64,000 nucleotides of DNA from Prorocentrum cordatum (taxonomy: Eukaryota > Sar > Dinophyceae > Prorocentrales > Prorocentraceae): NCBI GenBank assembly GCA_963575745.1, contig CAUYUJ010009779.1, forward strand, positions 653,811-717,810, written 5' to 3'. This document shows, piece after piece, positions 22,221 through 61,068 of the stretch. The translations under genes were made by a program, and so were the position numbers. Every line of letters begins with the position of its first letter. Position 1 is the stretch's first letter. Under the pieces are notes generated by a model that was not told the DNA's origin, searched no databases, and was given only the letters and a program-made list of their open reading frames with translations.

Positions 22221-22224
22221 GCCG

Positions 22225-40330: not shown

Positions 40331-40338
40331 CCTTATGC

Positions 40339-40430
40339 TTAACGATCCTGGCATGCCCTAAAGGGCATGCCAGCTGAAATAAATCGAAGTAGCTTTTAAG
40401 TAACGATAAATTAACTTTAGGGTTGAGACC
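40339..40430 (+). repeat. Left terminal inverted repeat of the giant element
   Basis: TTAACGATCC is followed by a hairpin, CTGGCATGCCC-TAAA-GGGCATGCCAG (40348-40373), then AAATAAATCGAAGTAGCTTT, AAGTAACGATAAATTAACTT and TAG. It is more diverged from the right end than the internal copy at 47319-47426 is. Confidence 0.82.
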
Positions 40431-40556
40431 ACAACTAACGCCCGAAGAGCCATAAAATAAGCAATGAAAATCGCCACGACGAAAAAGTATGCATGTTGAT
40501 AACACCCTGGCCCACGAACTCCTGGGAACCGACGGCCAATTACGCGCGTTCTGGGG

Positions 40557-40603
40557 CGCGGTTGTCATGCCGCGCAACGACGTTGCGCGGCATGACAACC
40601 GCG
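40557..40603. repeat. Perfect 47-bp palindrome
   Basis: 23-bp arms (CGCGGTTGTCATGCCGCGCA then ACG) around a single A, with no mismatch. Just inside the left terminus; cruciform-prone. Confidence 0.95.
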
Positions 40604-41497
40604 GTTGCTGCAAAGCAAACGGGGCAATGACATGGCGGGAAGAGGTCGAGCGGTGGCAGGGCGAGCTCAGAGAGCAGGGAGAAGGAATGGACACAGCGAG
40701 ACGGGCGGAAAGGGGCAGCATTGGAAGGACATGAAAAGATGGAATGTGCACGGGGCGGACGCTGACAAGAGGAACTGCGGCAACGAGATGAACTGAATCT
40801 GCAGAGGAATGGCAGGGCGGGCGGAGCGAGAGCGCAATCGATGAAAGATCAACCGACAAGTGAATGAACTCATCCCGCAACTCGGTCACGCAAGTGCAAC
40901 TGCAATCCTGGCGGCACGCCTTGCCGCGGCCCAGAGAAACGCAATCCGAAGGGGGCGGCCGACTTCCTGAACTGGCAACTCCCAGAATCAGACTCTGCCC
41001 TGGGGCCCACCACGGAAACAAACGCAATCCCCCATCCCCGCGCCCAGTCGGGCGCCGAGCCCGAACTAGCCGCCAAACTACATTCCCTAAATCCTGGTCC
41101 CCCTCCCCCACCCCCTCCCCCGATACGTGCCAATCAGGGCCCCCCATTCGAAACCTCAACGTCTACCTCCCTGCCCCCCGCTTTCGCCAACCTTGGCGCG
41201 CACCCTTTGGATTAAAAAAAAGCCTCGCGCGGCAGCCAAGCGGGTGGAAGTGGGGGAAGTTCTCTGCCCTGGATGCGTTTGGAGGGGTAGCGGGCTTGGA
41301 TGCCATGGTGAGGAGGGCCCCTGAGGCCGAGGAGAGGAGGGGCACGGATGGGGGCAGGGAGGGGAGCGAAAAGACGGCCGACGCGCACGAGAAGGAGCCC
41401 CATCCAGCGCGCCAAAAAATATGCCGACGACCTCGGCGACAGGAAACAAATCGCTGTCATCGTCAGACCCTGGCCCTGGGCACGAAGCCTGTCAACC
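40604..41497. other. 3' region of gene A, no exon assigned
   Basis: Minus-strand frames of about 100 codons exist (41544-41212, 41449-41156) and could be a terminal exon of gene A, but none has family support. A third, longer frame (41159-40056) looks like random text. Confidence 0.35.
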
Positions 41498-44400
41498 TCA
41501 CTTGTAACGTTTCCCTGGGGATCTTGGCATCGAAACCTCATCATCCATCGCCCCCGCTCCGAAGCGGCCCCGAAACCCGCGGTGCACGGCGAGCCCCCCC
41601 CCCCTCGAGGGGGGGGGCTGATTAGCGTGAGCGGAACCCCTCATCCAAAAGACGCGATCAACGCCAACTCTATGGGGCACCCTCCCTCCTGCGCCGCTGC
41701 GGGCGCCTACCCACGGCCGATTGGCGACGACCGCGCGCAACGCGTTGGCCAGCGTCGCGTGCATGTCCTTCGAGCTGCCGCCGTGCGTGCGAAAGGCGCG
41801 GAGCTCGTCCACGACGGCCGTGCGCATGCGATCTGGGGCCCCGCTGTTGATGTCCACGTGCATGCACACCAAGTTCTCGGTCACTGTCGTGCGGCCCCTG
41901 AAGACGGCGGCCTGGGCATCTTTGACGAGGGCCTCCTTAGGCTCCTTGCTCATGAAGCCCGCAGCTGCCGTGTACTTCTCGATCGCTGACTTCGTCTTCT
42001 CGTACTGCTCGGAGATCGCCTTGAAAGACGCGCCCTGCGTCCGCACCTTCATGTGAGCGATGATGGCCTTCATGTCGACTCCTGCAGCTAAGCCGTCTGG
42101 CCACGGCGTTCCGCTCGCTGTCCCGTGCATGACCTTGGTGAGCTCAGCCAACGGTTGCTGGAGCAGATCCTCGCAGCGCCCGAGCTTCTCCATGCCGCCC
42201 TTGTTGATCAACATATCTGCCTCCGCGACCCACCCGAGCAACGTCTTCGCAAAAACCTCGGGCAGCCCGCGCGGCGCCGACTCGGGCTCCGTGAAGAGCG
42301 CCTTGGCCTTGCCCACCAGGATGCCGAGCTGGTGCACGAAGCCGTCCCACTCAACCTTCGTGGTGTAGTCGTCCTCGTTGCAGAAGGCCGTAACCTGCCG
42401 CAGAAGGTCGCGCAGCTCGAAGCTGACCTTGAAGACGGCAATGATCTTCTCGATGACCGCGTCCTTGTGCCCGAGGGCACTGTGGAAAGCAGACAAGCAT
42501 CTAAATATATCGCTCTCGTGGTCGGGCTCCTCGTTGGTGGCCAACTCGACGACGAGGCCTTCAAGCGCAGCCTCAGCGAACGACCAATCGGGGTTGCCAG
42601 ACTTCTTCAGCGGGCCCGCGCGGTAGTTCTGACACACAAGTAGTAAGGCCTTGATCTCATCGAAGCAGTCAGCCTTGAAGCCAGCGTCGCGCGCGGCCGC
42701 AGCATCAGCCTCGTCGAAGAGGGCCTTGCACATCTTCATCATGTTATCCTGGTTGGCCGTGGCTTCCATCTCACACAAGAAAGTTGCCACGTGGTTGCTC
42801 GCCGAGCTGACGCCCGCATCCAGAGCGAACGTGAGGGACGCCTCCTGAGCCAATGCCGACACTTCCTTGATCCTGTCCGGCGTAAGTAGCTCAGCCTTGG
42901 CGTCCGACCGCAAGCCCAAGCAGACTGAACAAATGGTGTGCTTCATAGCTTCCTCGAGCTCGTCGGTCAAGCCCGCTGGGAACCCGTTCTTCCAGACCGC
43001 GAGCTTCGGGCACAGCCCGCGCAACAATGCAAGGTCGATGACGTCGGCGACGGCTCCAGCCTGTGAGAGGGAAACGCCGCCACAGGCGGGGCGCGGCAAG
43101 AGGCGAGAACAGGCGGGATGGAGTGACAAGGGCGACGAAGTGAGAAGCTAGATGAGGAGAGCAAGGGCGCGGGGGCCGACCGAGGCGAGGTGGGAGGCGA
43201 CGAAGGACGAACGCGAGGAGCAGGCGCATGACGCCAGGGAGGACGACGGGGACTGCAAGACGACGAAGGGAAAGCATGAAAGAGCGAGCAGGGAGGGCGA
43301 GGACGATGCGAATGGGCTGGGGCCTTCGCCACCCCCACCTGGTCAAGAGCGGTGCGGAACGCGTGCATGTTCGCCCGCATGAAGGGCAGCTTCTCCACGA
43401 ACGCATCGAACCTGGACGCCCAGAAGGTGGTCCTCTTAGTGATGGCCGCCACGAGGTGCAACGGTGACGCGCCAGACGCCCCCATCGCCTTCGAGAAGCG
43501 GATGATCGCAACGTAGGCCTCGCACTTCATCTCGAGGCACGGCCCATCGCTCATCGCTGAGTTCCAAACGAGCTGCATCTCGGTGATGTCCGTGATGATT
43601 CCAGCGAGGTCCCCTCCCACATCCAGCAAGTCGACGCTCGAGAACTCCTCGGCCAGGCCGTCGATGACGGCGCGCACGAACTCTTGCTGCGCGCCCCCCT
43701 TGGAAATCGCAGAGCACAACGAGTTCTTCAGCACGATGTCGGTGAATGCCTTCGCGCGCTCCCCCTCGTCAACGACTGCGGCCGCTAAGACAGGGTCGCT
43801 CGGGTCGAAGGAGAGGGCACTCTTGGGGAAGGGAGTCATGATGCGGATGAAGAACGAGACGTTGCTCCGATGGTCGAAGCTCTGCAACCTAGCATTCACC
43901 AAGGCGAACTTCGTTCCGCTCGGGAACACGGCGCCTGCATCAACCATGGACTTCACTGACGCCAAGATCTGCTTCCAATCGCACCCCCCGATGTTGGCGG
44001 GCTGCAGCTTCTTGGCGATCACGATCTCGTCGGAGAAAGTGGCTAAGATGGCCCCGTCTGCCTTTCCCGCGCTGGTGGCGTTCAGACGGCCGATCTTCTT
44101 GGTCAAAGCGGCGATGGTCCTCCCGTCAACCTTGTCAGCCATGATGTCGCCCAAAGGAATGCGCTTCTTCCACCTGGCCAATAGATCATCTCCTGTGGTT
44201 CCCTCGTCCCCGTCGTCGCCGAAAGCGGTCGTGGCGGCAACGCTGGCTGCGGTCGGGCTCAAAGGCTCGGCGGGTTCACCTGCGGTCCCTTGGGCCCCGT
44301 CGGCTGACTGCTTACCAAAGCGGCGGCGCCTGGCAGCGGACCCTGGGCTGAAGCCAGCGGCAGCGTCCCCAATCATTCGGGGCCTGCGACCCTGCACGGG

Positions 44401-45642
44401 CGAAAGTACATCACCCGATGGTTTGGGCTGAACAGGGCCAGTGCAGGAAGCCAAGAATTGCTCCAACGTCGGCATCGAGTCGCTGGACGCCTTGCTCAGG
44501 AGCGCTTGGAGACCGTTCTGCTGGAATGCAGATCCAGCACAGCGAGCAAGCGCTTCCTCGCCCTGGGCAGCGAAGAGCTGGTTGTCAGCCTCGAGCACCG
44601 TCCCATTCAAGGTCCACCCGCGCATGACCTGGAGCTCAGCAGTCCGCGCAGGCGTGTCGCCCTCGCTCTTGAAGACGAACAACTGCTCGTCGCCCTTCCC
44701 CGACTCGTGCGGCATCGTCACCACGGCTGTCTGGTCGCTGACCCTCTTCGGGATGCGCTCCATCTGCAACGACGCCCTGATGTCGGGCGCTGGGGCGATG
44801 GCAACGGGGCGCTTTACTACCAAACGAATGGTGGTAGTCTCCTTCACGTCGCTCGGCAAGAACTGCTGCTTGCCGCTGGATACCGTCGCCACCGCCTCCT
44901 CAAGGCGGTCAGAGAGAGCTTGGTCAGTCTCAGTCTTGTCCACAGTGCTGCGGAACGTTTCCCCTGGAGCGACTGCGACAACGCTCTTGTAGCAGTTCTT
45001 GCAAGCCTCACCACAAGCAATCATGACACCCTGGCTAGATTCCCTGTAGAGCGCCCAATCGACTTTAGCCTGATGGGCCAATCAGAAACAACAAAGCTCC
45101 ACGACGCACAACTGATCTCCAACGGTAACGGGGGCCATGTCCAAGCTGGGCTCTGGGGGGGCGGGCGTCGAGAAAGGTCCACGGGGAGAGACGCTTCGAA
45201 CGTGCATATCGCTATCACAGTTCTCAGACCCCCCGCCCCTAAAAATCCCTGAGGGCGCCCCCGTCGCCATTGTCCTGGTGGGTTCCAGCTCCTCCAAGAG
45301 GACCTGCCCCCCTCGTTGCCGCGGACCGCTGGGCCCCTTTTCACACCGCGCCCTCCCCCGTCGCCCCAAGAGGCCCACCCCTAAGAACACGGACGGAAAA
45401 AAACGCTGAATGCAATTCCATGCCCATTGCACTGGCGTCTGCTGGCAGCGGTAGCACGACGTGGCGTCCGAGTTCGACAAGCCAGCCGACTTGGCCGCCT
45501 CCGCGGCAGACGAGATCTGATGTTTCGTGCGCCTGCAACGTTTCTGGGCCTTCGCCGCGGGGGTGTCCGCAGAAGCGGCGGGCGATGCGGCAGCGGCAGT
45601 AGCGGCCTTCTGGGCTGGAGTCAGGGCCCTCTTGCCCGCCAT
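41498..45642 (-). CDS. Gene A: dinoflagellate family protein with N-terminal zinc site
   Basis: Three exons are read on minus: 45642-45433 (70 codons), 45069-43339 (577) and 43060-41711 (450), all a whole number of codons, so both introns are phase 0. Exon 3 can also read on to a stop at 41498, giving about 1167 residues. The start is ATG at 45642 (MAGKRALTPAQ); a longer GTG-started frame upstream is ignored. C63-x2-C66 at the end of exon 1 and C93-x2-C96 in exon 2 (ACGEACKNC) would form a zinc site split by intron 1, with the Trp (VDWALYRE) between them. After this come a Ser/Thr/Ala-rich linker and a long mixed alpha-helical region without recognised catalytic motif. From memory it resembles an uncharacterised, expanded dinoflagellate family whose N-terminus is C..C-W-C..C. 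Function unknown; inside the giant element it is a candidate accessory or passenger gene. Confidence 0.75.
41711..43060 (-). CDS. Gene A exon 3
   Basis: Begins AGAVADVIDLALLRG after a strong pyrimidine-AG acceptor. Cys/Leu/Lys-balanced helical protein, clearly coding in composition. It ends at ANRPW|GTAGGC if a further intron exists, or reads through to 41498. No known fold recognised. Confidence 0.75.
43339..45069 (-). CDS. Gene A exon 2
   Basis: Begins AKVDWALYRESSQG directly after the CAG acceptor and ends FRTALDQ before donor CAG|GTGGGGGT. It holds the second half of the zinc site (C93-x2-C96, with C89 nearby), a FLPSDVKE...IRLVVKRPV segment and long helical stretches. Intron 2 (43338-43061, 278 nt) ends TTTCCCTCTCACAG. 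Confidence 0.8.
45433..45642 (-). CDS. Gene A exon 1
   Basis: Encodes the Ala/Lys-rich N-terminus and the first half of the zinc site (SCYRCQQTP). The donor is CCA|GTGCAA. Intron 1 (45432-45070, 363 nt) ends TTTCTGATTGGCCCATCAG. Confidence 0.75.
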
Positions 45643-45931
45643 TGCAGTCAGTAAGTAATTACCCGCCAAGGATGGAATGGGGGCTGCTCGCCACACTCAG
45701 TTCGCTCGATCACACGGCGGCTGACCGCGGGGCCGCGCTGGGAGTCGCCAGAGAGAGAGAGACCACCCGCCTAGAAGAGCTACACCACACATAGACAACA
45801 ATATATGTCAGATGGTGCCCCTCTCCCAAAGCAGGCAGAACATGTCAAAAAAACAGACGTCCCAGAACACCTCCCAACTACTGACCCCGAAGTCCTGCGT
45901 CCGCGAACCTCTCGGGCAACTCGCGAGTGGG
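45643..45931 (-). other. Gene A 5' flank
   Basis: Upstream of the ATG on minus there is a run of possible trans-splice AG acceptors (e.g. CGAACTGAG, GGCGAGCAG). No TATA-like or other promoter motif is recognisable, as expected for a dinoflagellate. Confidence 0.3.
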
Positions 45932-46472
45932 GACGTCGCTACAAGCCTGGACAGCGTGACCAGAACGATTGGGGAGCCAACCCCTGCAGTTCCCCAAGCA
46001 CCATCTGGCTGGGGATCGTGGCCCCGCTACTCCCCACCAAGCCTCCTCCTGCGTCTCCTCTTCATCCGCTGTGTCCTCTACGTTGTTCTGCTACGGTTGC
46101 CTTCTTCTTCCTTCTCCATTGCTAAACAGAAGCACGAGGGAAACCAGTTTCGGAAACTGGTTTCCCTCGTGCCTTGTGGCAGCCACCCAAAACATGAGGG
46201 AAACCAATTTCGGAAACTGGTTTCCCTCGTGTTTTGTGGCAGCCACCCAAAACACGTTGTTCTGCTACGGTTGCCTTCTTCGTCCTTCTCCATTGCTAAA
46301 AAGAAGCACGAGGGAAACCAGTTTCGGAAACTGGTTTCCCTCGTGTTTTGTGGCAACCACCCAAAACACGAGGGAAGCCAGTTTCGGAAACTGGTTTCCC
46401 TTGTGGTTTGTGGCAGCCACCCAAAACACGAGGGAAACCAGAGTGTTTGGGGCGGCTGCCACGACACTGGGG
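45932..46472 (+). repeat. 541-bp palindrome module P, copy 1
   Basis: The lead (GACGTCGCTACAAGC, GATTGGGGAGCCAACCCCTG, GGGGATCGTGGCCCCGCTAC) is followed by two tandem subunits of about 175 bp. Each starts TTCTGCTACGGTTGCCTTCT and carries two palindromes of the GCACGAGGGAAACCAGTTTC-G-inverse type (46132-46172 perfect; also about 46193, 46303, 46363). Copy 2 at 54191-54731 has the same length and order. Confidence 0.93.
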
Positions 46473-47318
46473 CACGCGACACTCCCATAACCTAAGGTCC
46501 TGCTCACGATGAAGCACGCGAAATAAACCCAACCGCAAGGAATACGAGCGTCCCAGAAGAGCATCGGACAGACTGATGTCCAAGGGGGTCCCATGACGGC
46601 CACAAGCGTGCACCAGGAAGCCCCTAGACCCAGACGCACTAGCACATTTGAAATTGCCTACGGGGGGTGGCGGCACGCAACAGCTCGACAAAAGCAAGCG
46701 CGGGATGTGAAATCCACATCCATTTGTCGGCGCAATTCGTTCGGGTGGCGGCTCTGAGATGAGCAGACAAGGCCAGCGAGCATAACACTTCCTCAGCTGG
46801 GGACGGGAAGGGCACCTCGCACGCCCAGGGGCCACGCCCATCAGCACGATGCGCGGCAAGAGCCGCCCGTGAGCCCAGACAAACAACGTTCGAAAAGTTG
46901 ACGCGGATCCAATCGTTGCACTGAGTCCGATGGTGGCTTCAGGTCGGCCCAAAACGGCTCCAATATTGCTACGTGCGTCGCTCACCTCGTCACTCCCCCC
47001 CACCACCACAACCACCCGCGGTGCCGATCTCCGCGGGCCCCCGCCACATCTTCTGAACCCCGCGCCCGAACCCCGACGAATGTTTAACGCATCCAACGCG
47101 GAGCCTGCGTCAAGCCTCCGACGGCCGCGCAACAGACTCTACCCCCTGGACCGCCGACTCGGCATCGCCCGCGGCCCGCTCGGCCGCCAGCGCAGCCTCG
47201 GTTGTGCATGGGGGTGGCGCCAACTAGCTCGCGGCCTGCGCTGACCGCGCGCCAACGCAACTCCTGGACACGCGGTCGGCGGAGGCCGCGGAATGAATTC
47301 GGCGCCATCCCCATCCAA
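46473..47318. other. Spacer inside the giant element
   Basis: Frames exist on minus but lack recognisable motifs or splice logic. No repeat copy was identified. Confidence 0.4.
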
Positions 47319-47426
47319 CCTAAGCCACAGATTCACCAATACTCCTAAAGTCTCTTTAACGTTACATAAAACCTACATTGTTTTTTTTCTGCCCCACCCT
47401 GGTTTTAGGGATGTGAGGATCGTTAA
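47319..47426 (-). repeat. Internal copy of the giant element's right terminus
   Basis: Nearly identical to 60953-61060 (a few substitutions and one A-run difference) and in the same orientation: CCACAGATTCACCAATACTC through ACGTTACATAAAACCTACAT to GGATCGTTAA at 47417-47426. The following bases, GCCTTGGC, do not match either outer flank. I infer the end of a second, nested or partly deleted element. Confidence 0.85.
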
Positions 47427-47620
47427 GCCTTGGCCGTCTTGGCCAGTTCATCTAACTCTTGGGTCGACAAACGTGTTCGGCCATGCGGCTGTTCGGCCGA
47501 CTCCGCGACGAGGGGCTTCAATGACGCCTCTGGCGCCGCGTCGGGCTCGGCTCGGTCGGCGGCGCAGCCGCCCCAGGAGGAGGTTGCAAAATCGAGGTCG
47601 AGCAGCCTCAGAATGAGGTT
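47423..47620 (-). CDS. Possible C-terminal exon ending in the internal terminus
   Basis: Minus-strand frame ending PHGRTRLSTQELDELAKTAKA, with its TAA stop supplied by the TTAACG of the internal terminus. Composition is coding-like from about 47620 (LRLLDLDFATSSWGG) down, but I recognise no family and no certain acceptor. It could be the tail of a gene interrupted by the terminus. Confidence 0.25.
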   Translation of the reverse strand, partial: NLILRLLDLDFATSSWGGCAADRAEPDAAPEASLKPLVAESAEQPHGRTRLSTQELDELAKTAKA

Positions 47621-47865
47621 CGGGCTATCGGCTTTGCTTGCGCCTCGGGCGTTTCCGTCTCGACCCCAGCGCACCCATCCAGCTCGTCGGGCGCCGAGGT
47701 GCCACCCGAGGCGCCATCGGCTTGGAGGACGGGGGCGGCGCCCCTCGACGGCGCATCCTCCTCGGCGCCCTCCTGGGTCGCGGCCGCCGACGTCGCCGCC
47801 AATCCAGCGAATCCGAGGGGGGGGGGGGGGGGGGCGCTGGCGCTCCCACATTCAAGCGCTGCTCG

Positions 47866-47928
47866 AGGGCACTTGGGTTATCGAGCGGCTCGATAACCCA
47901 AGTGCCCTCGAGCAGCGCGGCTACGCGA
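47866..47928. repeat. Perfect palindrome, 30-bp arms
   Basis: GCGCTGCTCGAGGGCACTTG...TATCGAG, spacer CGG, then the exact inverse. Preceded by an 18-G run at 47817-47834. Confidence 0.95.
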
Positions 47929-49551
47929 ATGGGAACTTCACGCATCGCAACCTGCTCCACCCATCGGGTTCAAGGGTGGCGGCGGGGTCAGTGAGCCGAC
48001 CGACCGTCGGCGAAACTGCGATATCATCGCGCCGACGCTTCTCTCGAGCTAGCCCGCGCCACCCCGCGCTCCGACGTGCCCAATCAGATCCTGAAGCGCA
48101 TCGGTTGCACCACAGTTGCGCCAACATAGAGTGCGCTCGTCCGCGCAGCGAGGCGCGAACGGCGAGGCGCGGGCTGACATCAGGAAGGCGCAGTCTCACA
48201 GTTCGCGCCGCCGCCTACGTTGAGAACCGAAGCGCGCTCACCGCTGCTGCCTAGTGACTCGCCCCCCCCCCCCCCCTCTCCCGCGGCACCCCATGGCCCC
48301 GTGAGCGTCGAGCAGGGCGCGCAACCGAAAATTGAAGCCGAATCCTTGCGGGCCTCCTGGGGCGCGGAACGCCGCGAGGCAATGACAATACCTTCGCAGG
48401 CCGAAGCTCAACTTAACAACAATCCACAAATCGGCGAATATGCAAGACGGGGGTCAAACGACAACCAACCAACGAAAAACGTGCGAATATATATAAGTCG
48501 CCTGAAGCCAGCGCGCCGATCCGCTAGCCAGTCCACGGCGAAAAGGATACGCAATCTTCTCTAAGGGTGCTGCAAAGATGTCCACGAGCGAACAACTGCT
48601 GCCAAACACAAGGATCGGAACCTACAGAATGGGACTCCCCAAACCCACATCCGCAACAAAATCAGGGGCGGATCTCGCCGAAAGGCATTCCTATTGAAGA
48701 AGCCGCAACAGCGGCGCGCGTCTCAAGAGCGTCTGAGAGGACCCAAGGAGGACCGCCAGGAGCCCAAAACGCACCAGGAGGATCGAGCGGAGGAGGTGGG
48801 CGATTTTCTCGGCCGCCAAGGCACCCCTCGCCGCCGCAGCTGGATCCGCCTCCGAAAGCATGGCCGCGTCGCGGTGCGCTCAGATTCTGCAAAAAATGAA
48901 AGGAGGGCGAGGCTCCCCCTCCCTGCGGCTGCCTGGGGCGAGCCCCTAAGACGGGCAACCGCCTCCTGGGCCCTTTCTGCGCCCTCCGCAGAGGGCGCGG
49001 AGGAGGCCCCTCCACTGCCCACCTCCCAGCGGGAGGAAAGCACAGGAGGCGGAGCGGGGGGTGGCGCCTGCTGGTGGCAGCGGCCAATCGCTGGTCGGGC
49101 CACGGGGCGCTAACCTCAAGGGCTAGCGTACGGTATGGGCCCTTCCCGTCCTCTTGAAAGGGGAAGAAGGATCCTTACCACAATCCCCGCGGCAGCCAGT
49201 ACTTACATCGGCTTGCCATCCGTGACCCCCAACGGTGCCCGAGAGGAGGAGAAGGGGGGGAGGACATGCGACGCATGACAACTTCACTCCCAAGAGAACT
49301 AGGAATGACGCACCGCGCGGAACCAACAGCGACAGTGAAACATATACATAAACACACATACTAACCGAACGGCACCAACATAACACCGACGAGGCCCCCA
49401 AAGGCCCGCCAGGTTGGATCTCAGTCACCAACCAGAGGATCAAATCACCCCCCCCCCCCCCCCCCCCCCCCAAAGACCTCACTCCCCTCCCCTGGGTGCC
49501 CACCCTATTCCCCGTGGACCCGCCTGATTGGATCCCCGTCCAGGCCTTTGG
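47929..49551. other. Spacer with homopolymer C tracts
   Basis: Contains C runs at 48262-48276 and 49448-49471 (24 C). GGGAGGCG/CCTCCCGC-type words occur between 48700 and 49050. No exon could be supported. Confidence 0.4.
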
Positions 49552-50209
49552 CGCACTCGGAGAAGCAGACGGCGCCAACCCCCGAGCCGTTCAAAGTTCA
49601 AACTGCTGGCCCAGCACCACAAGATATGGTTAGGGATAAGTGGACCAAGATCTGTGCATTCGAAGGGACGTCGGTTCACTTATTTCTGGCGCCAAGGGCA
49701 CCAAAATCTGCCAGATCGATCTCCCGCACCCCCCTCGAGATCCTTCAGAGGCGTGTCCAAGTAGCCAAGAAACCCCCGAGCGGCTCCACAGGCCCTCCTG
49801 AGCTCCGAAACTTCCAGAGGATCCCAAACTAGGACTCCCGCGTCGGCAACGTCGCCATCGCCGTCGCGGAGCCTCCCCCCCGATCAGCGCACTCAGAAGC
49901 GGACGGCGCAGCCCCCCGAGCCGTTCAAACTGCTGGCCCAGCACCACAGGATGGTTGGGGATAAGTGAACCAAGATCTGTGCATTCGAAGGGACGTCGGT
50001 TCACTTATTTCTGGCGCCAAGGGCACCAAAATCTGCCAAATCGATCTCCCGCACCCCCCTCTAGATCCTTCAGAGGCGTGCCCAAGTAGCCAAGAGAAAC
50101 CTCCGAGCGGCTCTACAGGCACGCATGGGCTCCGGAACTTCCAAAGAAGATCCCGAACTAGGACTCCCACATCGGCAACGTCGCCATCGCCGTCGCGGAG
50201 CCTCCTATC
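49552..50209 (+). repeat. Tandem duplication, about 330-bp unit, two copies
   Basis: 49556-49877 and 49889-50209 share GACCAAGATCTGTGCATTCG (first copy TGGACC, second TGAACC), GTCGGTTCACTTATTTCTGG and CTTCAGAGGCGTG, ending GTCGCCATCGCCGTCGCGGA, at roughly 90% identity. No gene is evident. Confidence 0.92.
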
Positions 50210-51932: not shown

Positions 51933-54900
51933 GCTACAGACCGACAGCACGAGCTCGGCGACTAATCCACCGCGCTCCTGCACCGTCGATGTCGGCGACG
52001 CCGACAGCCATCGATCGGAGGAGGGGGGGGGGAGGAAGAAGAGGAGGAGAGCTTGAAGGGGGGGGTGAAGAATACGATGAGGGTGAGGAAGAGGAAGAGG
52101 AAGGGCCGCGACCCGAGGTTCACCACTGACTATGGCGACGGCCGATCGCACGGCGAGAGCGGCGACGATCACGAACCTCCCAATGCTCCTTCCAACGACG
52201 CCGACTACGACGGGCGAACATGAGCCACGCACGGCCTTGGGAGACGAATCGACGCGAAGACATCACCTGGCCGCCGCCGACAACAACACTGCACACTGAC
52301 AAGATCTGAAAGGCTAAGCCTGGCCAGGGCCTCCAGACTCCAGACGGGGCACAACTCACACCATTGGTTTTTCAACGCTCTGAATGCCAGACACGCCGAA
52401 CTGGCACCTCCCTAGGATTGCGAACGTGGTTTCGAGGCTTGCGTAGGCGCCTGGCGCTCCATCTGAGGCAGAAAAGAGATTGACAATGGTGGAGCGCGCA
52501 TCCCTCTCTCGCCCTCCCCCCTCCTACCTCGCCTCCCTCTCTGCCGACGCTGGCAACCAATAAAGGCAGCAAGCGAAACTGCAGCAACTCAACAGGGCGC
52601 GGGGCGGCAAGCGCCCGCCTCGCCACGTAGGGGGAGGATCGGCTCAATCTTGGCCCAGTCGCTCAATCTGACGAGCTGCTGGAGTCCGTGAACCAGTCGC
52701 CGATGCGGTCGCCGTTCGCGTCGCGGTGGACCAGTGGGAGCACCACCTCGCGAGGCTCCGAGCTCAACGGGGCATCCGACGACGTGCTGCTGGACGACGA
52801 TGCCGCGGCTCCGATGGCGAGGGACTGGTTCGGCGGCAGCCCGCTGAGCGGCGTCGAGCTGGAGTCGCGGATCGCGCCGGTCAGCGGGATCGTGGCGTAG
52901 GTCTCGGCGACGGGCTTGATGTCTGGCAGTGGGATGGCCTTGGCGTACTTTGGGCTTAGAACATTGTATTCTGGAGTCCCTGGAACCGAGGCGCTGACCC
53001 AGACCGTAGGCTCCCCGAAAGACAACGTGGCGTCAGAGTCGTAGTACGTCGTCTCAGTTTCATCGCCCGTGAGGTCCTCCGCACGTGAGCGATGGGGCAC
53101 CACAGCGCTGTCGTCGTTGGCCTCCCCCAAAGGACCGAGCCAGTGACCTCTGATGCCGAGCGCCTCTTCGATCCTCTTGAGCCGCTGGTGGAAGCGAAGG
53201 TCGCGAGCCTCCAAGGCGTCAAATGCCTGCGGGCCGTCATGTGCCCGTTCGCCCGCTACCTCGCCATCCTGCCACCGCCCTCCCCGCCTCGCGCCCCTGC
53301 GCGCACTAATCCCGAGCCAAACGCCGCCGCGCCATCCCTGGCCAGCGCGAAAAGGAAAGCGCTGGCGCGGCGCGGGATTAGCGCGGCGTCGTCGGGCCAG
53401 GGCGCAGGAGGGCGCGACGCAAGCGGGCGAGGCAGGAGGCGAACAGACACATGGGGAGGAGGGGTGCGACAGGCGTGGTAAATGCAGACAGGCAGGCACG
53501 GGGGCGAGGAGTTATGGCGAAATTGCCATGCCAACCCTGCAGACCCAAGAGAGAAGCCAGGACTTGTAATCCTCGTGCTCCAGCCGCGCACGCTGCGCAG
53601 CGCGCTCGCCCTCGCTCGGCACCGCCTCGAGGTCGCTCGGCGGGCGGGCGCGGCGACGGGATGGCGCCGCCAGCGCTGCCATCGCACGCAAGCTGCTTGC
53701 TGCGACGCAGGCGGCACGATGCTCAAAGAAAAGCTCCGAGACAATGAAGCCAGAGCCGAATCAGCAACAGACGGCGGGCTCTCGGCTCACACCGAAACAA
53801 CGCGCGCCTTCCGAAGCCCAGACGACTGTCGACCTCGTGTACGGGGGCCCCCTCCTAACCCCCTCCCCAAACCACCGTAAGCCCCAATCCCAGCCTTGTC
53901 CCCCGCTGACCTTCTCCATCTCAAATCTCAAGAAACGTTGCCAAACCGTGGAATGATACCCGCCTTCGCATACATAAGGCTAGCGAAGGACCCAACCACA
54001 TGCCGCTGAGGATACTGTAAGTGTGAATATATTATTCGGTGGCGCCCCCTATGGGCACGCGGGCCGCATCAGGGGCGCGCCGACATTCGCGGCGGCGCAG
54101 ACGACGCGAACGAAGGCGATATGTCTGAATATGACAGCTAGGGCGCGAACGAGTCTGACCGCGAGCGAGTCTGATCATGCATGGTGAGCAGACGTCGCTA
54201 CAAGCGTGAGCAGCGTGACCAGAGCGATTGGGGAGCCAACCCCTGCAGTTCCCCAAACACCGTCTGGCGTCTGGCTGGGGATCGTGGCCCCGCTACTCCC
54301 CAACAAGCCTCCTCCTGCTTCTCCTCTTCCTCAGCTGTGTCCTCTACGTTGCCATGCTACTGTTGCCTTCTTCTTCCTTCTCCATGGCTAAAAAGAAACA
54401 CGAGGGAAACCAATTTCGGAAACTGGTTTCCCTCGCGTTTCGTGGCAGCCGCCCAAAACGCGAAGGAAACCAAATTCGGAAACCGTGTTTTTGTGGCAGC
54501 CACCCAAACCGCGTTGTTCTGCTACGGTTGCCTTCTTCGTCCTTCTCCATGGCTAAAAAGAAACACGAGGGAAACCATTGTCGGAGACTGGTTTCCCTCG
54601 TGTTTTGTGGCAGCCACCAAAAACACGAGGGAAACCAGTTTCGGAAACTGGTTTCCCTCGTGTTTGATGGCAGCCGCCCAAAACACAAGGGAAACCATAA
54701 CGTTTGGGTCGGCTGCCGCGAAACTGAAGCCCCCTCCTCTTCCTCCTCCTCGCCGCCCGCGAACGGGCACGGGCAAGCGTTCAAGCTCAACCCCCCAAGG
54801 GCAGAGCGAGATCCTAAAGGTGGTTGAGATCGGCGGCGGTCCTCCTCCTCCCACGCCTCCTCATCGACACTCCCCCCTCATTCGTCCTTCTCGCCCCTCC

Positions 54901-55287
54901 TCTTCGCCCTCAGCCCCCCCCCCCATCCTTCTCGCCGCCGTCATCTCAAGAACCTTGAGCCCCCGCCCGCCTTTCTGGCGCCTGCTGGTTTACGCAACTA
55001 GCCCGAACGATGCGTCGGGGCGTCGCCAACTGACCCGCTCCTCGACCGAGGTGCCAACGACGCGCCCGCGTGCGCTTTCGGCGCGCGCGGGGAATCTAGA
55101 CCTCGGCGGGCTATTACGCTGTCGCAACATTCAACGCCAACAATGTTTGACGCCAGACGCTGCGCTAGATACCGTCGGCAAGATTTCAAGAGCGGGAAAC
55201 GGCGGAAAGGGGGGGGGGGGGCATGGCGGCAATGCAAGATGGCATCCTCTGGAATGGCGCCTCGAAGATCTCATCTGCCATCAGCAA

Positions 55288-55318
<31 letters not shown>

Positions 55319-58300
55319 CACTCACCCCCTAACCCCTAACCAAGATCGCGCTCGGAGAACTGGCAAGCGCCGCGCATGCTGGGCGGCGTCGGCGGGTCCC
55401 GACGATCAAACCCCAATGAATTGGTAGAGAAGCCAACTCGCTCGAACGAGCGCGACAACGACAAAAAGCAAACAAACCCTGCCCCTGCCGACCTCTCGGG
55501 CCCTCTCGAGCTCGTCAGTCAAGTCCTCGAGCTCATCGGAGACGGCCTCGGACTTCCCGTCGTCGCCGATGACGTCGGCGTCCCCGCCGACGGGCTCGTC
55601 GTCAACGACGGCCTCGACGTCGGCCTCGACGACCCCGCCCTCCAATGCTGCGCGAGGTGCAGCGGGCGGGGCCCCAGCAGGACCAGCAGGAGCGGCGCCC
55701 TTGCCCCCGGCAGCGGCCGATGGCGGCCAGAAAGGCAAGACGCCATACCCAGCAAGCGGCAGCACAGGCACCGTATGAGGAGCAATATCACCAACAGGCC
55801 TGGTGGAATACTCCAGCACGTACCAAGTTGCTGTCCAGCGAGGGCAATCCAACAAAAACGCGAGAGCGTTGAACATTGACTTGAATTCGAAACATGTCTT
55901 GATATAAACTCTGTCCTCCCTCGGCGGCAACTCGACCAAAGCGTCGACGGGCTTCGCCGTCATGAAGGTCGGGCGGTACGGCGACCAATGCATCATGCCC
56001 ACGTGGAGCCACGCGTCGAGGCTGAACCCGAATAGATCATCATCCAGGTCATCACCATCGGGGCGCCCACTAAACTTGACGACAAGCCGCCCCTCGTCCA
56101 CAAGCGCACGCTCGGATGAACCAGGGCGCGTGAGTATCTTCAGCGACTGCAAGAAAGCTACAATCCGTCTATGTAAATCTTTACCACGGCCTGAACACAC
56201 ACACACACATCTCAACACTGCAACACGCAGGGAACTCCTTAGTCCGTAATCCAGGCTGCTCGGTCGGCGCCGCGTCGTGTCTGATGAAGTCGTGGGCCCA
56301 CTCGTTGAATGCCTCCAAGGCCTGGCAAATGCCGCTCGTCTTGTACTTGGGTACCGCCCATGATACAGCGCGACCGAGATGTACACCAATGTCGAAATCA
56401 GGCTCCACAGCCCGTATCTTTCCAGACGCTGGAACCGCAACGAACTTCAGGACACTGGCAAGTGGCAGTTGGCCCTCCACATCGCTAACTGGGGCCTTGC
56501 CCTTGTCTTCGCAGAACTCGCGGATGGCCGTGACGTCGCCCTCCAGGGTGGACTGCGCCTTCTCCCGCCTCCCCCTGACCACGGCGCGGCATGACGTCAG
56601 GGCCTCTTCCAACGATGGAATAGAGCCCTCCACACTCTGCAGAACAAGCTCCGCGGGGTTGAGGTCGACCTTCTGGATGGCATCGTGCATGATCTTGTTG
56701 CGCTTCGCTTCTCGCGAAGCCTCGGAGGGCGTCGCGCCGAATGAAGAACGATGGGTAGACGCGCCGCTCCTGCCAGCAACCGTGGCTAGTTGGCCAATCT
56801 CCGTCAACCTCGCCTTCTCCTCGGGGGGCAGCGTGCAATACTCCACAGACCATAGTGCAAAATCTGCGCGGCCGCCAGACTCCAGCAACTTCTCACGGCA
56901 AAATGCCCGCCACGCTCCTCCTGGCCGAGTCTGCTTCTTACAAGGGTGGTCTGGCTGGTCACGCTGAACTGGCTGGGGCCTCAACTCGTCAGTGAATGTC
57001 TGACGCGCCGCCCGCGTCCTGCATTGCCCGAACATCCAATCATTTGACATATCTTTGAAAGACATCTGTGGCAGGTGTGCCGATGCAGATTCCACTGTCC
57101 TTCTGATTCTGGCGAAAGCCCTCTCCTGCGGCCCGTTGTCGCAGATCCACTTCAATACGAAACTGAATATTTTGGCCTCGCACACGTCACCCTGGAGATC
57201 AGGGTGGCCCGAGATAATCCGACCCGCCCCCGGGGGCGCGACTGACCAAACTCGTTCTGGCACCTCCCAGCCCCCCGCCCCCCACAGGGCGCCTAAAGCC
57301 CACGCGCCAACTGGCCCCAGGCCCCAGGCTCCAGGATGGCCGCGAAGCTGGGCCCACAGGAGCGCCAGAGGCCTCCGCGGCAAGCCCTGGAAGGAGGGGG
57401 ATGGGGCGGGGGTGGCCAAGGCGCGCTCAAAGCTCCCCCTGCAGATTCCCTCCACCGCCAAAGTTAGCACATCGGGAACGCGCTATACTACCACGGGAAC
57501 GCCAAGCGGCTCCAAGACCCCCCCATGGCCTCCACCCCAAGAAGCCCTACACTACACCAAACAAGGCCCGAACTAACCCAGAGCTCCACGGGTCAACGCA
57601 TGCGAACCAACCAAGACCCTCATTCCTCGGTAGTTGCCCACCGCGCGACGCGGTCAACAACTCCCGAGGGGCGAAGGTCTTCGCCCGACTGGCCGCGTTG
57701 GGGGTGGCGGATAGAGGCCCGCGAAGCGAGAATGATTTGAAGTGAGATCGGGTCCATCAAATGTTTTGACATTTTGCTGACCGCCTCCTTCGTCGCAGGC
57801 TGCTCCAACGTCCGAAACAAGATCCATGGGAAACCTCGCCGCTCAGCTCTCCAAAGGAATTCAACTGCGCACCCCAACCGCGAAAGAGTCTGAAACACGA
57901 GAGCCCTGAACTCGACAGTGTGGCAATCGTCTGGGAGTAACGTCCACATCAACTTCTGGCTGAATAAGGCGTCGATCCTCTCGAAGCACGGGGCGTCGAC
58001 GTCGCCTCGGGCCAGCGCCAGCGGCGCGAAGTCGCGCGCGAGTAAAGCAGTCGAGCCAGCCTGAATCTCGCGAGCGGCCTTGGCAGTCTCGCGGCGCTCG
58101 AACGTTGGCCCGTTGATGTAGGAGCTCAGCTCGCGCATGCCGCGGAGAGGCTCCATGGCGTTCCGCTGCAGCACGAGCAGGCCCAGCGGGTTGCACGACC
58201 ACCATCTCCGCGCCGCCTTCCTGTACCTGGCGTGCTTGATGGCGCCGTCCTCCGCGTCGCGCCCCTGCGGCCGCGGGGCGGCGTCGGCCTCGTCGCCGCT

Positions 58301-60091
58301 GCCGACGTCGAGGATCGCTGGGGCGCCAACCTGATGCCGCCGGCCTCGGCCGCCAGCGCGACGTGCGTCCATCCCGCCGCGGCTCTCGGAAAGAGAAGCA
58401 ACCTTGTGCCCGTGAGCCAGCATGTACCGCCTGAAGGCGTGCGAAAACACTCCGTGGCACGCCTCACCAATCGCTGTCTCGTCCGTGGCGACCTCCCCGC
58501 GGCACCACTTCGCCTCCTGGTACCGCGTCGGGACATGCGGCGCCAATGCCGTGGCCAAACCCGACGCCAACACGTGGACGATGGCGCGCCTGTCGACCTC
58601 CGCGATGGCGCCGTCGGTGACGTGGTAGATCACGTGCTTCGTGTTCCTCCAGTCCCCGTTGGGAAGCGTGGACAGCAAAAGCTTGGCCATCATGTTCGAG
58701 CGTTCAGTCGTGGCGCAAAAAGTCCTGATGCACAACATCCGATGCAAGGCAGCGAACTCATCGCATCGGCCGTCCACGATCAAGCACCTGGCCTCGACGT
58801 CGTCGTAGATGCATTGTTGCCAACACATCATATCGCCAGTCATCTGGAAACTAAGCTGGTGATGAAGCATGCCACGAACACTCAGGTGTAGTGGAGCCAT
58901 CGTTTTCTTGTAAGCAGTCGCAATCAAATGGCTTCCACAACACTCGCGGTGGCGAGGCCACCCTCTCTGTTGACCAACTATCCGCTCTGCCTTCTCGTTC
59001 GTGTTTTCACCGTCCGTCATTGCAAACCTCGCCCTGCTTTGAAACTTGCCCGACCAAATGCTCGAGCCCGAAGCCCTGGCCTGACTCCGCGCGACACATT
59101 CCCCAGCCCCCCTCTCGAGCAATCCCAAGCTGGAGGCTTTCGCAAAACAAACCACCGTCAACGAGGAACCGACCGTACACAACATCGCATACCTCAATCG
59201 AGTTTGCATGGTCTGACAAACTCCCGAATATGATGGCGTCTTGATTGCGATCCTGACTGTCTGTGGCGATTCGAGAGCCGAACTTCTCTGGCTGCAATCT
59301 GTGACAGCATCAGCTGGGAGCGCAACCTTGAACGCCAGAAGCGATGAGTTCCCTGATAATGTCGTCACGAAATCTGCGGCGTCATAACAAGCGAACTCCA
59401 CGTACTGATGCAAATGACCAGCTGGGAGGCTGGATACCAAAGCTCTCTCCAACAGCATTTGAGTCATCGTGTCAAAAACCGCAACTCCTGCCCCGAGAAC
59501 ATCTGTAGCCCTGGCCGCCTTCGTCTTACCAGTTGTCAAAGCCACATTGCGAACCGTTTTGGACTGCAGCCGAGACGAGGAGGAAGAAGCCAAAACATGC
59601 TGGGCCATCTTCAGAAAGTCATCGTCCAAATCCGAGGCGCCAGCGGTCGCGCCCAGCTGAACGGCGGCGGCTAAGTTCGTGGCCAAACCAGTGGTTGACA
59701 TGAAACCCTGCATCCTGAACGGGACGATGCGCAACTTGCCACGGGCGTCCCGAGGGACGACGGCCGCGATCTCAGCCGCTGCAGCCTCCTGCGGGCTGAG
59801 TCGCGGCCCCTGGGCGGCCCCCACCGCGGCGGCCGCCTCCAAAACCAACGCCTCGATCGGGCCCTCGGCGGCGACCCTCGGGGGCCTGCCGCGCCGCCGT
59901 TTCGGCGGCGCCTCCACGACCGCGCCCTCGGCGGCGGCGGGCGAAGCAGCGGCGGGCGGCGCTGCCAGCGCCGCCAGGTCGCCCCAGCCGCGGCGCTGAG
60001 CGGCCTCAGCCATCGACACCCCCGAAAACCGATGGCGCGGAGGCGCCGCCAGCTCCGCCAGGTCGCCCCGCCCGTCGCCGGGGGCGGCCAT
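51167..60091 (-). CDS. Giant multi-domain hAT-like transposase candidate
   Basis: I read one gene on minus with exons 60091-57728, 57191-56229, 56146-55493, perhaps 53226-52670, and a last exon of about 51932-51167. Domain order: an Ala-rich N-terminus with an AT-hook (KRRRGRPPR, residues 64-72); a hAT-like core with TDGENTN (about 359) followed by CCGSH (about 384) and PNGDW (about 477); the region HTVEFRALVFQTLSRLGCAV; in exon 2 QERAFARIRRT, placed like the hAT C-terminal (SER.FS...RR) segment; an HMG-box-like GGAWRAF...LPPEEKARL...LATVAGR; in exon 3 SSERALVDEG...HVGMMHWSPYRP; in the last exon GGTIRYY...AHGCC...GRPVGFLVAWL. From memory this exact order occurs in large orphan proteins of dinoflagellates. 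Catalytic assignment is inference: the first acidic residue was not placed. Confidence 0.72.
52663..53226 (-). CDS. Candidate exon between transposase exons 3 and 5
   Basis: Open after the acceptor CGGCCCGCAG|GCATTT (phase 0): AFDALEARDLRFHQRLKRIE, then an acidic Ser/Thr/Pro-rich region (DETETTYYDSDATLSF, GTPEYNVLSPKYAKAIPLPD) and a Ser-rich tail ending at a stop at 52663. Coding-like, but not part of the family as I remember it. It may be an extra exon or an independent small gene. Confidence 0.4.
   Translation of the reverse strand, partial: AFDALEARDLRFHQRLKRIEEALGIRGHWLGPLGEANDDSAVVPHRSRAEDLTGDETETTYYDSDATLSFGEPTVWVSASVPGTPEYNVLSPKYAKAIPLPDIKPVAETYATIPLTGAIRDSSSTPLSGLPPNQSLAIGAAASSSSSTSSDAPLSSEPREVVLPLVHRDANGDRIGDWFTDSSSSSD
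53227..54190. other. Intron or spacer within the transposase locus
   Basis: No further exon is supported here. Confidence 0.35.
54191..54731 (+). repeat. 541-bp palindrome module P, copy 2
   Basis: Same lead, same two-subunit structure and same length as 45932-46472. Palindromes at about 54398, 54561 and 54624; one is reduced near 54460. It lies in the long intron of the transposase gene, whereas copy 1 lies upstream of gene A. Confidence 0.93.
54732..55492. other. Intronic sequence with a 30-C tract
   Basis: A C homopolymer at 55290-55319. No exon supported apart from the read-through of exon 3 to 55406. Confidence 0.4.
55493..56146 (-). CDS. Transposase exon 3 (WSPYRP domain)
   Basis: 218 codons, phase 0 at both ends. 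Contains SSERALVDEGRLVVKFSG, WLHVGMMHWSPYRPTFM, AFLLDCPRWTATWYVLEY and VLPFWPP, then an acidic tail (DELEDLTDELERARE) before donor GAG|GTCGGC. This arrangement matches the dinoflagellate family closely. The frame continues to a stop at 55406 if the donor is not used. Confidence 0.8.
56229..57191 (-). CDS. Transposase exon 2 (hAT C-terminal-like and HMG-like)
   Basis: 321 codons. The acceptor is CTGATCTCCAG|GGTGAC. It starts GDVCEAKIFSFVLKWICDNG, then QERAFARIRRTVES and MSNDWMFGQCRTRAA, which resembles the family segment just before the HMG-like box; the box is at codons 91-141. The donor is CCT|GCGTGT (GC type) or AAG|GAGTTC; both are phase 0. Intron 56228-56147 is 82 nt and ends TAGCTTTCTTGCAG. 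Confidence 0.8.
57192..57727 (-). other. Proposed GC-AG intron joining the transposase core to the HMG-like exon
   Basis: 536 nt. Donor GCTTCG, acceptor GATCTCCAG. Removing it restores the family order of hAT-like core, C-terminal-like segment and HMG-like box in one frame. Confidence 0.55.
57728..60091 (-). CDS. Transposase exon 1 (AT-hook and hAT-like core)
   Basis: The frame is open from 60238 to 57620. I choose ATG at 60091 (MAAPGDGRGDLAELAAPP) because the upstream 49 residues are Pro/Leu-rich and sequence-poor. A near-duplicate follows (MAEAAQRRGWGDLAALAAPP), so ATG at about 60013 is an alternative. The exon probably ends SLQIIL|GCTTCG, a GC donor giving 788 codons and phase 0; otherwise the frame simply stops at 57620 as a separate 823-residue protein. 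It carries the AT-hook and TDGENTNEKAERI, spaced about 20 residues from CCGSH as in the hAT D-x-x-x-N...C-x-x-H block. Confidence 0.82.
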
Positions 60092-60952
60092 GGCCGCGGG
60101 CGGCGGAGCAGGATGGAGGTAGAGGGCGGCGGAAAGGTAAGGAAGATGAAGGGGGGAGGGAGGGGGGAGGAGGAAGGAGGGAACAGCAGGATCAGCAGCG
60201 GAAAGGGGAGGGAGGTGCGGGAACATAATTTTCACCATGGAGGCCGAAACCCTGGAGGAGGAAATCTGGCCACACGAGGGGGCCGCAGGACCTGGGGTGG
60301 AACGGACGCCGCCCCAAGCAAACGCCCTGGGAAAGGTTGAGGTGGGAAGAGGGAACGCCGCGAGACCGACGGGAAACCCGAGGCCGCCTCCTCGCCACTT
60401 TCCGACCCCCGACCCCCCCCCTCACTCCAGGATCCTGCGCCGCAGCCCTGTCCCTCATGTTTGCCGTCGCCCTCTCCTCCCCCCCCTGTCGTCACTCCTG
60501 CTCCTGCTCCCCCGCGCCTCCACCCCCGCACTCCTCGATCCGTTTCCCGCCGATCGCGTGTTCCCAAAAGGAAAAAGAAGGAGCGGCGGAGGGCGAGGGC
60601 GGCGCGGCCGCGGCGCCCCGCGGCGTCGGAGCCAGCGGCGCCAGACGCACGCGGCGATGGGGGCGACAAGCCGAGGGGGATCGGTGGAACGGAAGAACGT
60701 AGGAGAGAAGGACGGGCACTGGGAAGAAGAGTAACGAGAGCGGGCGGGGGGGCATAGGAAGAGGGGGAGAGAAGGACTGGGGCAATGGAGGAACAATTGT
60801 GGAATTGTGGCTAGGAGAAGAAGCGAACGAACGTGAAACGTGCATAACGAACGGATACACGCGGCCGCGCGTGGTGGGCCGTAGCGGCACCCTTCCGTCA
60901 TGTTAATCCGATCGGGCCCCAAAGCCCTGAGCCACTCGTCACTTTTATCACA
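60092..60952. other. 5' flank of the transposase gene
   Basis: GC-rich; frames on both strands without family support. A short leading exon is possible but not visible. Confidence 0.4.
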
Positions 60953-61060
60953 TCCTAAGCCACATATTCACCAATACTACTAAAGTCTCTTTAACGTTAC
61001 ATAAAACCTACATTGTTTTTTTCTGCCCCACCCTGGCTTTAGGGATGTGAGGATCGTTAA
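60953..61060 (-). repeat. Right terminal inverted repeat of the giant element
   Basis: On plus it ends GGATGTGAGGATCGTTAA-like text (the exact last ten bases are GGATCGTTAA at 61051-61060), preceded by ACGTTACATAAAACCTACAT and a T run. It is followed at once by CCTTATGC. Orientation is inward-facing relative to the left end. Confidence 0.85.
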
Positions 61061-61068
61061 CCTTATGC

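What the first reader, a model, noticed from the sequence alone, without database searches (positions are those of the whole stretch)
40331..61068. A 20.7-kb DNA transposon with TTAACGATCC termini and an exact 8-bp target duplication
Seen directly: CCTTATGC then TTAACGATCC at 40331-40348, and GGATCGTTAA then CCTTATGC at 61051-61068. The two termini are inverted, similar for about 90 bp, and the 8-mer adjoins both terminal bases. The block between them has its own texture (few GGA arrays) and all its recognised genes on one strand. Known: 8-bp duplications are made by hAT and a few other cut-and-paste transposases. Inference: this is one giant, fairly young element carrying its own transposase plus at least one other gene. 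I know of no described element with these termini.
Basis: partly seen in the sequence, partly recalled or inferred. Interest (0 to 1): 0.95.

Follow-up and report, generated by a model that had tools for sequence, protein, structure and literature searches.

The report
Giant 8-bp-duplicating transposon in an alga
The 20.7-kb block is a real giant jumping gene of a dinoflagellate alga, one of a small family of about ten copies with the same kind of ends and the same two large genes, whose proteins matched no known transposase family in our searches.

Summary
In detail: CCTTATGC|TTAACGATCC at 40331-40348 and GGATCGTTAA|CCTTATGC at 61051-61068. The interpretation as one mobile unit holds too. In the same 4.13-Gb genome (Prorocentrum cordatum, inferred) related termini bound other large elements. 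Exact 8-bp duplications flank 4 of 7 copies read at both ends: window 20,722 bp, C21505 20,699 bp, C17044 about 87.4 kb, C4518 at least 11.3 kb; C20474, C14199 and C302 lack them. A right-end pattern matches 10 places genome-wide, its reversed control none; all nine 'P0001' gene loci found have one, and the tenth is an extra end inside the window copy. Genes P0001 and P0002 lie on one strand in the same order in six copies and evolve under purifying selection. Flanking 8-mers carry a central TA in 7 of 12 sites, like hAT-Buster. Pfam, NCBIfam and PDB searches gave no significant relative. It works like a hAT-type cut-and-paste transposon, but hAT membership is not shown. The 87-kb copy holds a cytosine-DNA-methyltransferase ORF.

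The parts
40331..40338 (.). target-site duplication, left copy (CCTTATGC)
40339..40420 (+). left terminus (TTAACGATCCTGGCATGCCCTAAAGG...), about 82 bp homologous to left ends of other copies
41501..45696 (-). P0002-type gene: ORFs 41501-43147, 42970-45081 and the conserved 45413-45534 piece inside ORF 45085-45696; dN/dS 0.32-0.42 between copies; function unknown
45932..46486 (.). internal repeat block with 46-bp palindromes, copy 1
47316..47426 (-). extra, inner right-type terminus (95% to the outer right end), followed by GCCTTGGC; no partner left end found
52666..53511 (-). possible third gene: ORF partly conserved in the C4518 copy (52889-52950 at 85%, 53010-53055 at 80%)
54191..54743 (.). 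internal repeat block with 46-bp palindromes, copy 2 (88% to copy 1)
55409..60421 (-). P0001-type gene, candidate transposase: AT-hook-like RRRGRP near the start, TDG..TNEK and CxSH motifs; 55723-60104 collinear with C17044; dN/dS 0.12-0.20 between subfamilies
57218..57731 (-). about 513 bp in the window copy of the P0001 gene that the C4518, C17044, C20474 and C302 copies lack; intron-like insertion
60951..61060 (-). right terminus (reads TTAACGATCCTCACATCCCTAAAG... on the minus strand)
61061..61068 (.). target-site duplication, right copy (CCTTATGC)

Best explanation
A 20.7-kb TIR-type (class II) cut-and-paste DNA transposon, one of a low-copy giant-transposon family in this dinoflagellate genome. 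SHOWN: conserved inverted termini TTRACGATYY..., exact 8-bp duplications at four independent sites, two linked co-oriented genes kept across copies under purifying selection, an excess of nnnTAnnn targets, and sizes of about 18-28 kb, with one of about 87 kb. INFERRED: the protein of the gene next to the right end (P0001; in the C21278 copy at least about 1,270 residues from its conserved start to the edge of the piece fetched) is the transposase. It would bind the roughly 85-bp ends, excise the whole unit and join it to target DNA with an 8-bp stagger, most likely by an RNase H-like (DDE) active site of hAT type. The P0002 protein would be a second transposition or accessory protein. The window copy moved as a whole once to this site, giving CCTTATGC. 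Its inner right end is probably the remnant of a nested or fused relative. Confidence below is for the giant cut-and-paste family; P0001 as hAT-like transposase alone I put at 0.5-0.6.
For: Four of seven two-ended copies have exact TSDs: CCTTATGC, AACAAGCA, CGATAGGC, GCCTACGC. Eight left and nine right ends (one of them the inner end) align almost without gaps over 130 bp. The right-end pattern gives 10 genome hits and the reversed control 0; the left-end pattern 8 and 0. All nine P0001 places have a right end; the C21278 end was not known when the pattern was written. P0001 and P0002 are linked on the same strand on 6 contigs; corresponding points of the two genes are 14.0 kb apart in C20474 and 14.1 kb in the window. 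dN/dS 0.12-0.20 (P0001) and 0.32-0.42 (P0002) between subfamilies, 0.92 between the recently separated C4518 and C17044 copies (only columns in stretches of 40% identity or more were counted, which favours low dN). Central TA in 7 of 12 flanking 8-mers and TA at no other position; binomial tail 7e-10 at the window's TA frequency of 1.9%. For hAT-type chemistry: 8-bp TSD with consensus nnnTAnnn for TcBuster (PMC3499496 passage); order TDG..N..CxxH as in a real hAT of this genome (L054); a very low-confidence model with strands, helix, strand ending in the invariant TD, helix.
Against: Three of seven two-ended copies lack a TSD: C20474, C14199, C302. No significant Pfam, NCBIfam or PDB-sequence match; best non-significant Pfam rows were YcbB E 0.12 and ArsA E 0.18. 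hhalign with five own-genome hAT frames: four score no higher than reversed controls; the fifth (L056, score 38.8, probability 30%) exceeds all five controls (at most 26.9), but over 29 columns at A2 184-214, the Pro/Ala/Arg-rich stretch, not the catalytic region. The first acidic residue of a DDE site is not identified: the best candidate column is D in 4 of 5 sequences and G in the window copy. Both AlphaFold runs were single-sequence and poor (pLDDT 37.6 and 34.8). L and R ends of C302 are no more alike than shuffles (23 against a maximum of 26). The inner right end at 47426 has no partner.
Confidence: 0.85

Rival explanations
1. Fused or macro-transposon: the outer left end belongs to one element (40339-47426, with P0002) and the outer right end to a neighbour with P0001 whose left end was lost; the pair moved together once. 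The 20.7-kb span is then accidental, not the family's natural unit.
For: A second right-type terminus at 47426, 95% like the outer one; duplicated repeat blocks 45932-46486 and 54191-54743.
Against: C21505 has nearly the same length (20,699 bp), the same gene order and an exact TSD. The genome-wide pattern gives only one right end each in C21505, C20474, C14199, C302 and C17044 (exact matches only), so the two-gene unit is standard without it; fusion could still explain the inner end alone.
Confidence: 0.1
2. The element is a cut-and-paste transposon of another superfamily with 8-bp duplications (for instance KDZ/Zisupton, or P, Mutator, Sola1, Novosib - the last four recalled), or of a wholly new one, not hAT-like.
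For: No profile match to hAT models; ends unlike the CA..TG-type ends of many hATs (recalled); two very large conserved proteins; Zisupton also makes 8-bp TSDs (PMC12730594 passages).
Against: nnnTAnnn target excess and the TD..N..CxxH order point towards hAT. No model of another transposase family in Pfam-A matched either.
Confidence: 0.35
3. The ends are short independent repeats or chance matches; there is no 20.7-kb unit.
For: The bare 10-mer is at chance level genome-wide; 3 of 7 two-ended copies show no TSD.
Against: Extended end patterns have 10 and 8 matches against 0 and 0 in controls, all on contigs with a P0001 or P0002 gene; four exact TSDs with chance about 1.6e-4 or less each.
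Confidence: 0.01

Closest known systems
hAT superfamily, Buster-type (TcBuster)
   Same: 8-bp duplication, central TA in most target sites seen (nnnTAnnn, PMC3499496 passage), TIRs, an acidic-N-CxxH motif order in the candidate transposase
   Different: about 18-87 kb instead of a few kb (recalled for hAT); termini TTRACGATYY with about 85 bp of weakly conserved TIR; two large genes; no match to hAT profiles, while PF05699 finds 8 other loci of this genome
KDZ (Kyakuja-Dileera-Zisupton)
   Same: 8-bp duplications in Zisupton (PMC12730594 passages)
   Different: no match in Pfam-A scans; no TET/JBP gene found in the window element; different termini
Teratorn (piggyBac plus herpesvirus, 41-182 kb)
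   Same: giant cut-and-paste element; additional internal TIRs are described for it (PMC6431247 passages)
   Different: no piggyBac transposase or viral gene found by Pfam; 8-bp duplications instead of TTAA (TTAA recalled)
Polinton/Maverick and Starship giant elements
   Same: size range (Polintons typically 15-25 kb, PMC6431247 passage); Starships carry cargo genes (PMC12134995, listing with start of abstract)
   Different: no polymerase, integrase, ATPase or capsid domain and no tyrosine recombinase found by Pfam in 41350-61060; TSD length differs (6 bp for Polintons, recalled)

Membership tests
TIR-type cut-and-paste (class II) DNA transposon | terminal inverted repeats at both ends | tested here: met
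   L and R ends beat 300 shuffles in 6 of 7 two-ended copies; C302 did not
TIR-type cut-and-paste (class II) DNA transposon | fixed-length target-site duplication | tested here: met
   exact 8 bp in 4 of 7 two-ended copies; 3 lack it
TIR-type cut-and-paste (class II) DNA transposon | independent copies at other sites | tested here: met
   nine P0001-bearing loci, mostly different flanks
TIR-type cut-and-paste (class II) DNA transposon | recognisable transposase | tested here: inconclusive
   conserved candidate P0001, but no significant profile match and poor models
hAT superfamily | 8-bp TSD | tested here: met
hAT superfamily | Buster-type nnnTAnnn target | tested here: met
   7 of 12 sites; consensus from PMC3499496 (passage)
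hAT superfamily | hAT transposase profile (dimerisation domain PF05699 and related models) | tested here: not met
   Pfam-A scans to E 10 give no hAT model; genome-wide PF05699 search lists 8 other loci, none on C9779; hhalign gives no significant match over the catalytic region
hAT superfamily | DDE catalytic residues in an RNase H-like fold | tested here: inconclusive
   invariant TD and C..SH; first acidic residue unclear; models too weak
KDZ (Zisupton) | KDZ transposase domain | tested here: not met
   no match in Pfam-A scans; that Pfam holds KDZ models is recalled
Polinton/Maverick | protein-primed DNA polymerase, retroviral-type integrase, ATPase, capsid | tested here: not met
   six-frame Pfam scans of 41350-61060 at E 0.1 empty
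Starship | tyrosine recombinase captain | tested here: not met
   same scans empty

The most novel reading that the evidence does not exclude
This is the first seen member of a new superfamily of giant cargo-carrying cut-and-paste transposons in dinoflagellates, with a two-protein transposition machinery unrelated by sequence to known transposases. It moves units of 20 to nearly 90 kb, including a cytosine DNA methyltransferase gene that could mark the element's own or the host's DNA.
Probability: 0.35. Interest if true: 0.88.

Novelty: new variant of a known kind. Interest (0 to 1): 0.72.

Why it matters
Described TIR transposons are mostly a few kb (recalled), and transposition efficacy drops above about 6 kb of cargo (PMC6431247 passage). 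A family that duplicates 8 bp around 20-kb units, and around one of about 87 kb, shows that a cut-and-paste mechanism can move very large DNA in a dinoflagellate. That bears on how these huge genomes rearrange. The two conserved proteins, which the profile libraries tried here do not see, also mean that such elements would be missed by routine annotation; the idea can be tested in every dinoflagellate assembly.

Tried and rejected
Pfam scans of ten window ORFs and of all six frames of 41350-61060 found nothing at E 0.1 (40339-41349 was not in the six-frame scan). At E 10 only non-significant rows appeared; NCBIfam none; PDB one row at E 1.1 and 1.5. Rfam found nothing in the window. Protein searches of the 5.8-billion set gave no hit for P0001 among the 7,992 and 7,987 candidates scored, but a genuine hAT reading frame of this genome also gave none among 7,955, so that silence says nothing about novelty. 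The idea that C4518 is a deletion derivative lacking P0002 was dropped: its 100-N gap (25880-25979) sits just where homology to C17044 stops. The idea that the bare 10-mer marks the family was dropped (its list shows only the first 100 places, and I did not examine loci L001-L008). Literature searches aimed at a described giant or hAT-like dinoflagellate transposon showed none among the rows listed (20 of 373, 12 of 376, 10 of 41, 4 of 4, 10 of 408, 8 of 14 papers); only open-licence PMC papers are covered. I saw passages of PMC10666404, PMC12730594, PMC3499496, PMC5890265, PMC6431247, PMC11453091, PMC9860276 and PMC11071213; in PMC10449503 the term search returned no passage. Other papers named were seen as listings.
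Full report
OBSERVATION. Left end and inverted right end share 11 perfect bases and align at 73.8% over 84 columns; the local score of 52 exceeds all 300 shuffles (maximum 24). An 8-mer match by chance has probability 2.4e-5 by composition and 1.6e-4 by random draws from this window. The window has no gaps. The bare 10-mer is at chance level in the genome (764+801 against 783+834 for the reversed control), so it is not a marker by itself. Of 105 tandem-repeat rows, the 16 with period 3 all lie outside the element and 8 rows lie inside.

GENOME. The window lies in an assembly of 4,128,499,153 bases in 21,875 contigs; contig C1 is 3,562,531 bases. The published Prorocentrum cordatum CCMP1329 assembly is 4.15 Gb in 22,724 scaffolds with a longest scaffold of 3.56 Mb (PMC10666404, passages). 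I infer that this is the source; no call names it.

OTHER COPIES. A search with the left end found, besides the window, C4518:24657 at 77%. A search with the right end found only the window's outer and inner ends. In C4518, AACAAGCA|TTAACGATCT at 24657 pairs with AGATCGTTAA|AACAAGCA at 35983, and a protein 69% identical to P0001 over 692 residues lies in the same place and orientation. A search with the P0002 gene DNA gave 11 matches on 8 contigs; with the P0001 gene DNA, 9 places on 9 contigs. Counts are lower bounds by the tool's own word. P0001 and P0002 are linked on the same strand in six: window, C17044, C20474, C21505, C14199, C302. In C17044 the left end at 59210 is preceded by CGATAGGC and the right end at 146592 is followed by CGATAGGC: 87,383 bp with an exact duplication. 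It contains at least one assembly gap (83446-83545), so the length is approximate. C21505:10314-31012 (20,699 bp) has GCCTACGC on both sides.

COPIES WITHOUT A DUPLICATION. C20474 (20,631 bp) has GCCTACGC on the right-end side, in a flank identical to that of C21505 over the 2.0 kb compared, but TGTTAGAG on the other. C14199 (27,898 bp) has TGCTGGTG and CTCCACAG. C302 (17,709 bp) has GTTTAGTT and CAGTAGAT. So 4 of 7 two-ended copies have an exact duplication and 3 do not. Two of the three misses look like exchanges between copies: C20474 shares one flank with C21505, and the 8-mer at the left end of C302 recurs at the right end of C21278, whose P0001 region is 99% identical (CAGTAGAT). Whether these are real recombination or assembly switches cannot be told here. 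C13505 and C21278 were read at the right end only and C14937 at the left end only; C21278's left end was not in 100101-101700, where I looked.

CENSUS OF ENDS. Right-end pattern TTRACGATYYNNANWTCCCTA: 10 exact matches in the genome, 0 for the reversed control. Left-end pattern TTRACGATYYNNNNATSYCCTAMA: 8 and 0. The patterns were written from the ends already in hand, so they count this type of end only; the C21278 end was new. All nine P0001 places have a right end; the tenth is the inner end of the window copy. No swarm of short derivatives (MITEs) with these exact ends shows in the assembly; diverged ones would escape.

TARGET PREFERENCE. Of 12 distinct flanking 8-mers, which include singly observed flanks and the inner end, 7 have TA at positions 4-5 and none has TA at any other position. 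With the window's TA frequency of 1.9% the binomial tail is 7e-10. The hAT element TcBuster has the consensus nnnTAnnn (PMC3499496, passage).

GENES. P0001: in the C21278 copy an open frame of 1,403 codons runs to the edge of the fetched piece, about 1,270 of them after the conserved MAEAGWGDL start. Five sequences were aligned (A2). Near the start lies RRRGRP, an AT-hook-like motif (recalled). P0002: four sequences aligned (A3), with invariant CGEAC..CY near the start. Between subfamilies dN/dS is 0.12-0.20 for P0001, with synonymous sites near saturation, and 0.32-0.42 for P0002; between the recently separated C4518 and C17044 copies it is 0.92. Only columns in stretches of at least 40% identity were counted, which lowers dN somewhat. 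The genes are conserved between lineages and drift within recent copies, as in other transposons. Pieces of 4.4 kb from C20474, C21505, C14199 and C13505 are 98.3-99.7% identical, so this subfamily has multiplied recently, partly perhaps by duplication of flanking DNA. A possible third gene, 52666-53511, is partly conserved in C4518.

WHAT P0001 MIGHT BE. No significant Pfam, NCBIfam or PDB match. By eye, the conserved AMTD..TNEK.ERI..RHRE.C.SHLI resembles the second acidic residue and CxxH of hAT; a real hAT frame of this genome reads TLDNDTSG..CSAHGI. The hhalign alignment of A2 with that frame puts the two CxxH motifs opposite each other but is not significant. Of five own-genome hAT frames, four score no higher than five reversed controls. 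The fifth, L056 (38.8 against at most 26.9, probability 30%), matches only 29 columns in the Pro/Ala/Arg-rich part, not the catalytic part, so I do not count it. A single-sequence AlphaFold model of the middle domain has pLDDT 34.8. Its order (four strands, helix, strand ending in the invariant TD, helix) is close to that of an RNase H fold (three strands, helix, strand, helix; recalled), but at that confidence it is a hint only. The first acidic residue is unclear: the best candidate column is D in 4 of 5 sequences and G in the window copy. I commit to P0001 as the transposase, of hAT-like chemistry, at about 0.5-0.6; the existence of the transposon itself is above 0.95.

WINDOW-SPECIFIC ODDITIES. 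An extra right end at 47316-47426 is followed by GCCTTGGC. None of the GCCTTGGC-like 8-mers in the window is followed by a left end, and no other copy shows a second exact right end. Repeat blocks 45932-46486 and 54191-54743 are duplicated in parallel. A nested, internally deleted relative that lost its left part is the simplest account. The P0001 gene of the window carries about 513 bp (57218-57731) absent from the C17044, C4518, C20474 and C302 copies, and the window frame stops inside it. It looks like an intron gain; introns of P. cordatum are reported to be enriched in introner elements (PMC10666404 passage). Splicing was not tested.

CARGO. The 87-kb copy holds an ORF with a C-5 cytosine DNA methylase domain (PF00145, E 2.4e-20, L036:2442-4229 minus), closest in the PDB to HhaI methylase, on the same strand as P0001 and P0002. 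Minus-strand scans of C17044:67501-87500 show no reverse transcriptase. On the plus strand only four selected ORFs were scanned, and about 54 kb of the interior was not read. Symbiodinium LINE and DIRS retroelements with such enzymes are known (PMC5890265, passages), so a nested retroelement is not excluded.

VERDICT.

Noticed in passing
L036:2442-4229 minus (C17044:79942-81729): C-5 cytosine DNA methyltransferase ORF inside the 87-kb relative, same strand as its P0001 and P0002 genes; cargo or nested retroelement.
   Followed up: partly
window 47316-47426: Second right-type terminus inside the element with no partner left end and no duplication; no other copy shows a second exact right end.
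   Followed up: partly
window 57218-57731: About 513 bp in the window copy of the P0001 gene that four other copies lack, probably an intron gain.
   Followed up: partly
window 46130-46408 and 54396-54665: Repeated 42-49-bp near-palindromes (such as AAACACGAGGGAAACCAGTTTCGGAAACTGGTTTCCCTCGTGTTT) in two places of the element.
   Followed up: no
C20474:104001-106020 and the C21505 flank; C302 and C21278: Near-identical copies whose flanks look exchanged: a shared 2-kb flank on one side only, and CAGTAGAT at the left end of one and the right end of the other. Assembly switch or recombination.
   Followed up: partly
L052-L059: Matches to the hAT dimerisation domain (PF05699) exist elsewhere in this genome, 8 loci listed.
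   Followed up: partly
window 19635-22243 and 62385-64000: Two long satellite arrays (89-101-bp and 78-bp units) that are related to each other in inverted orientation.
   Followed up: no
C17966:305286-306707 (L029): A P0002-like gene on a contig with no exact end of this family in the pattern scans.
   Followed up: no
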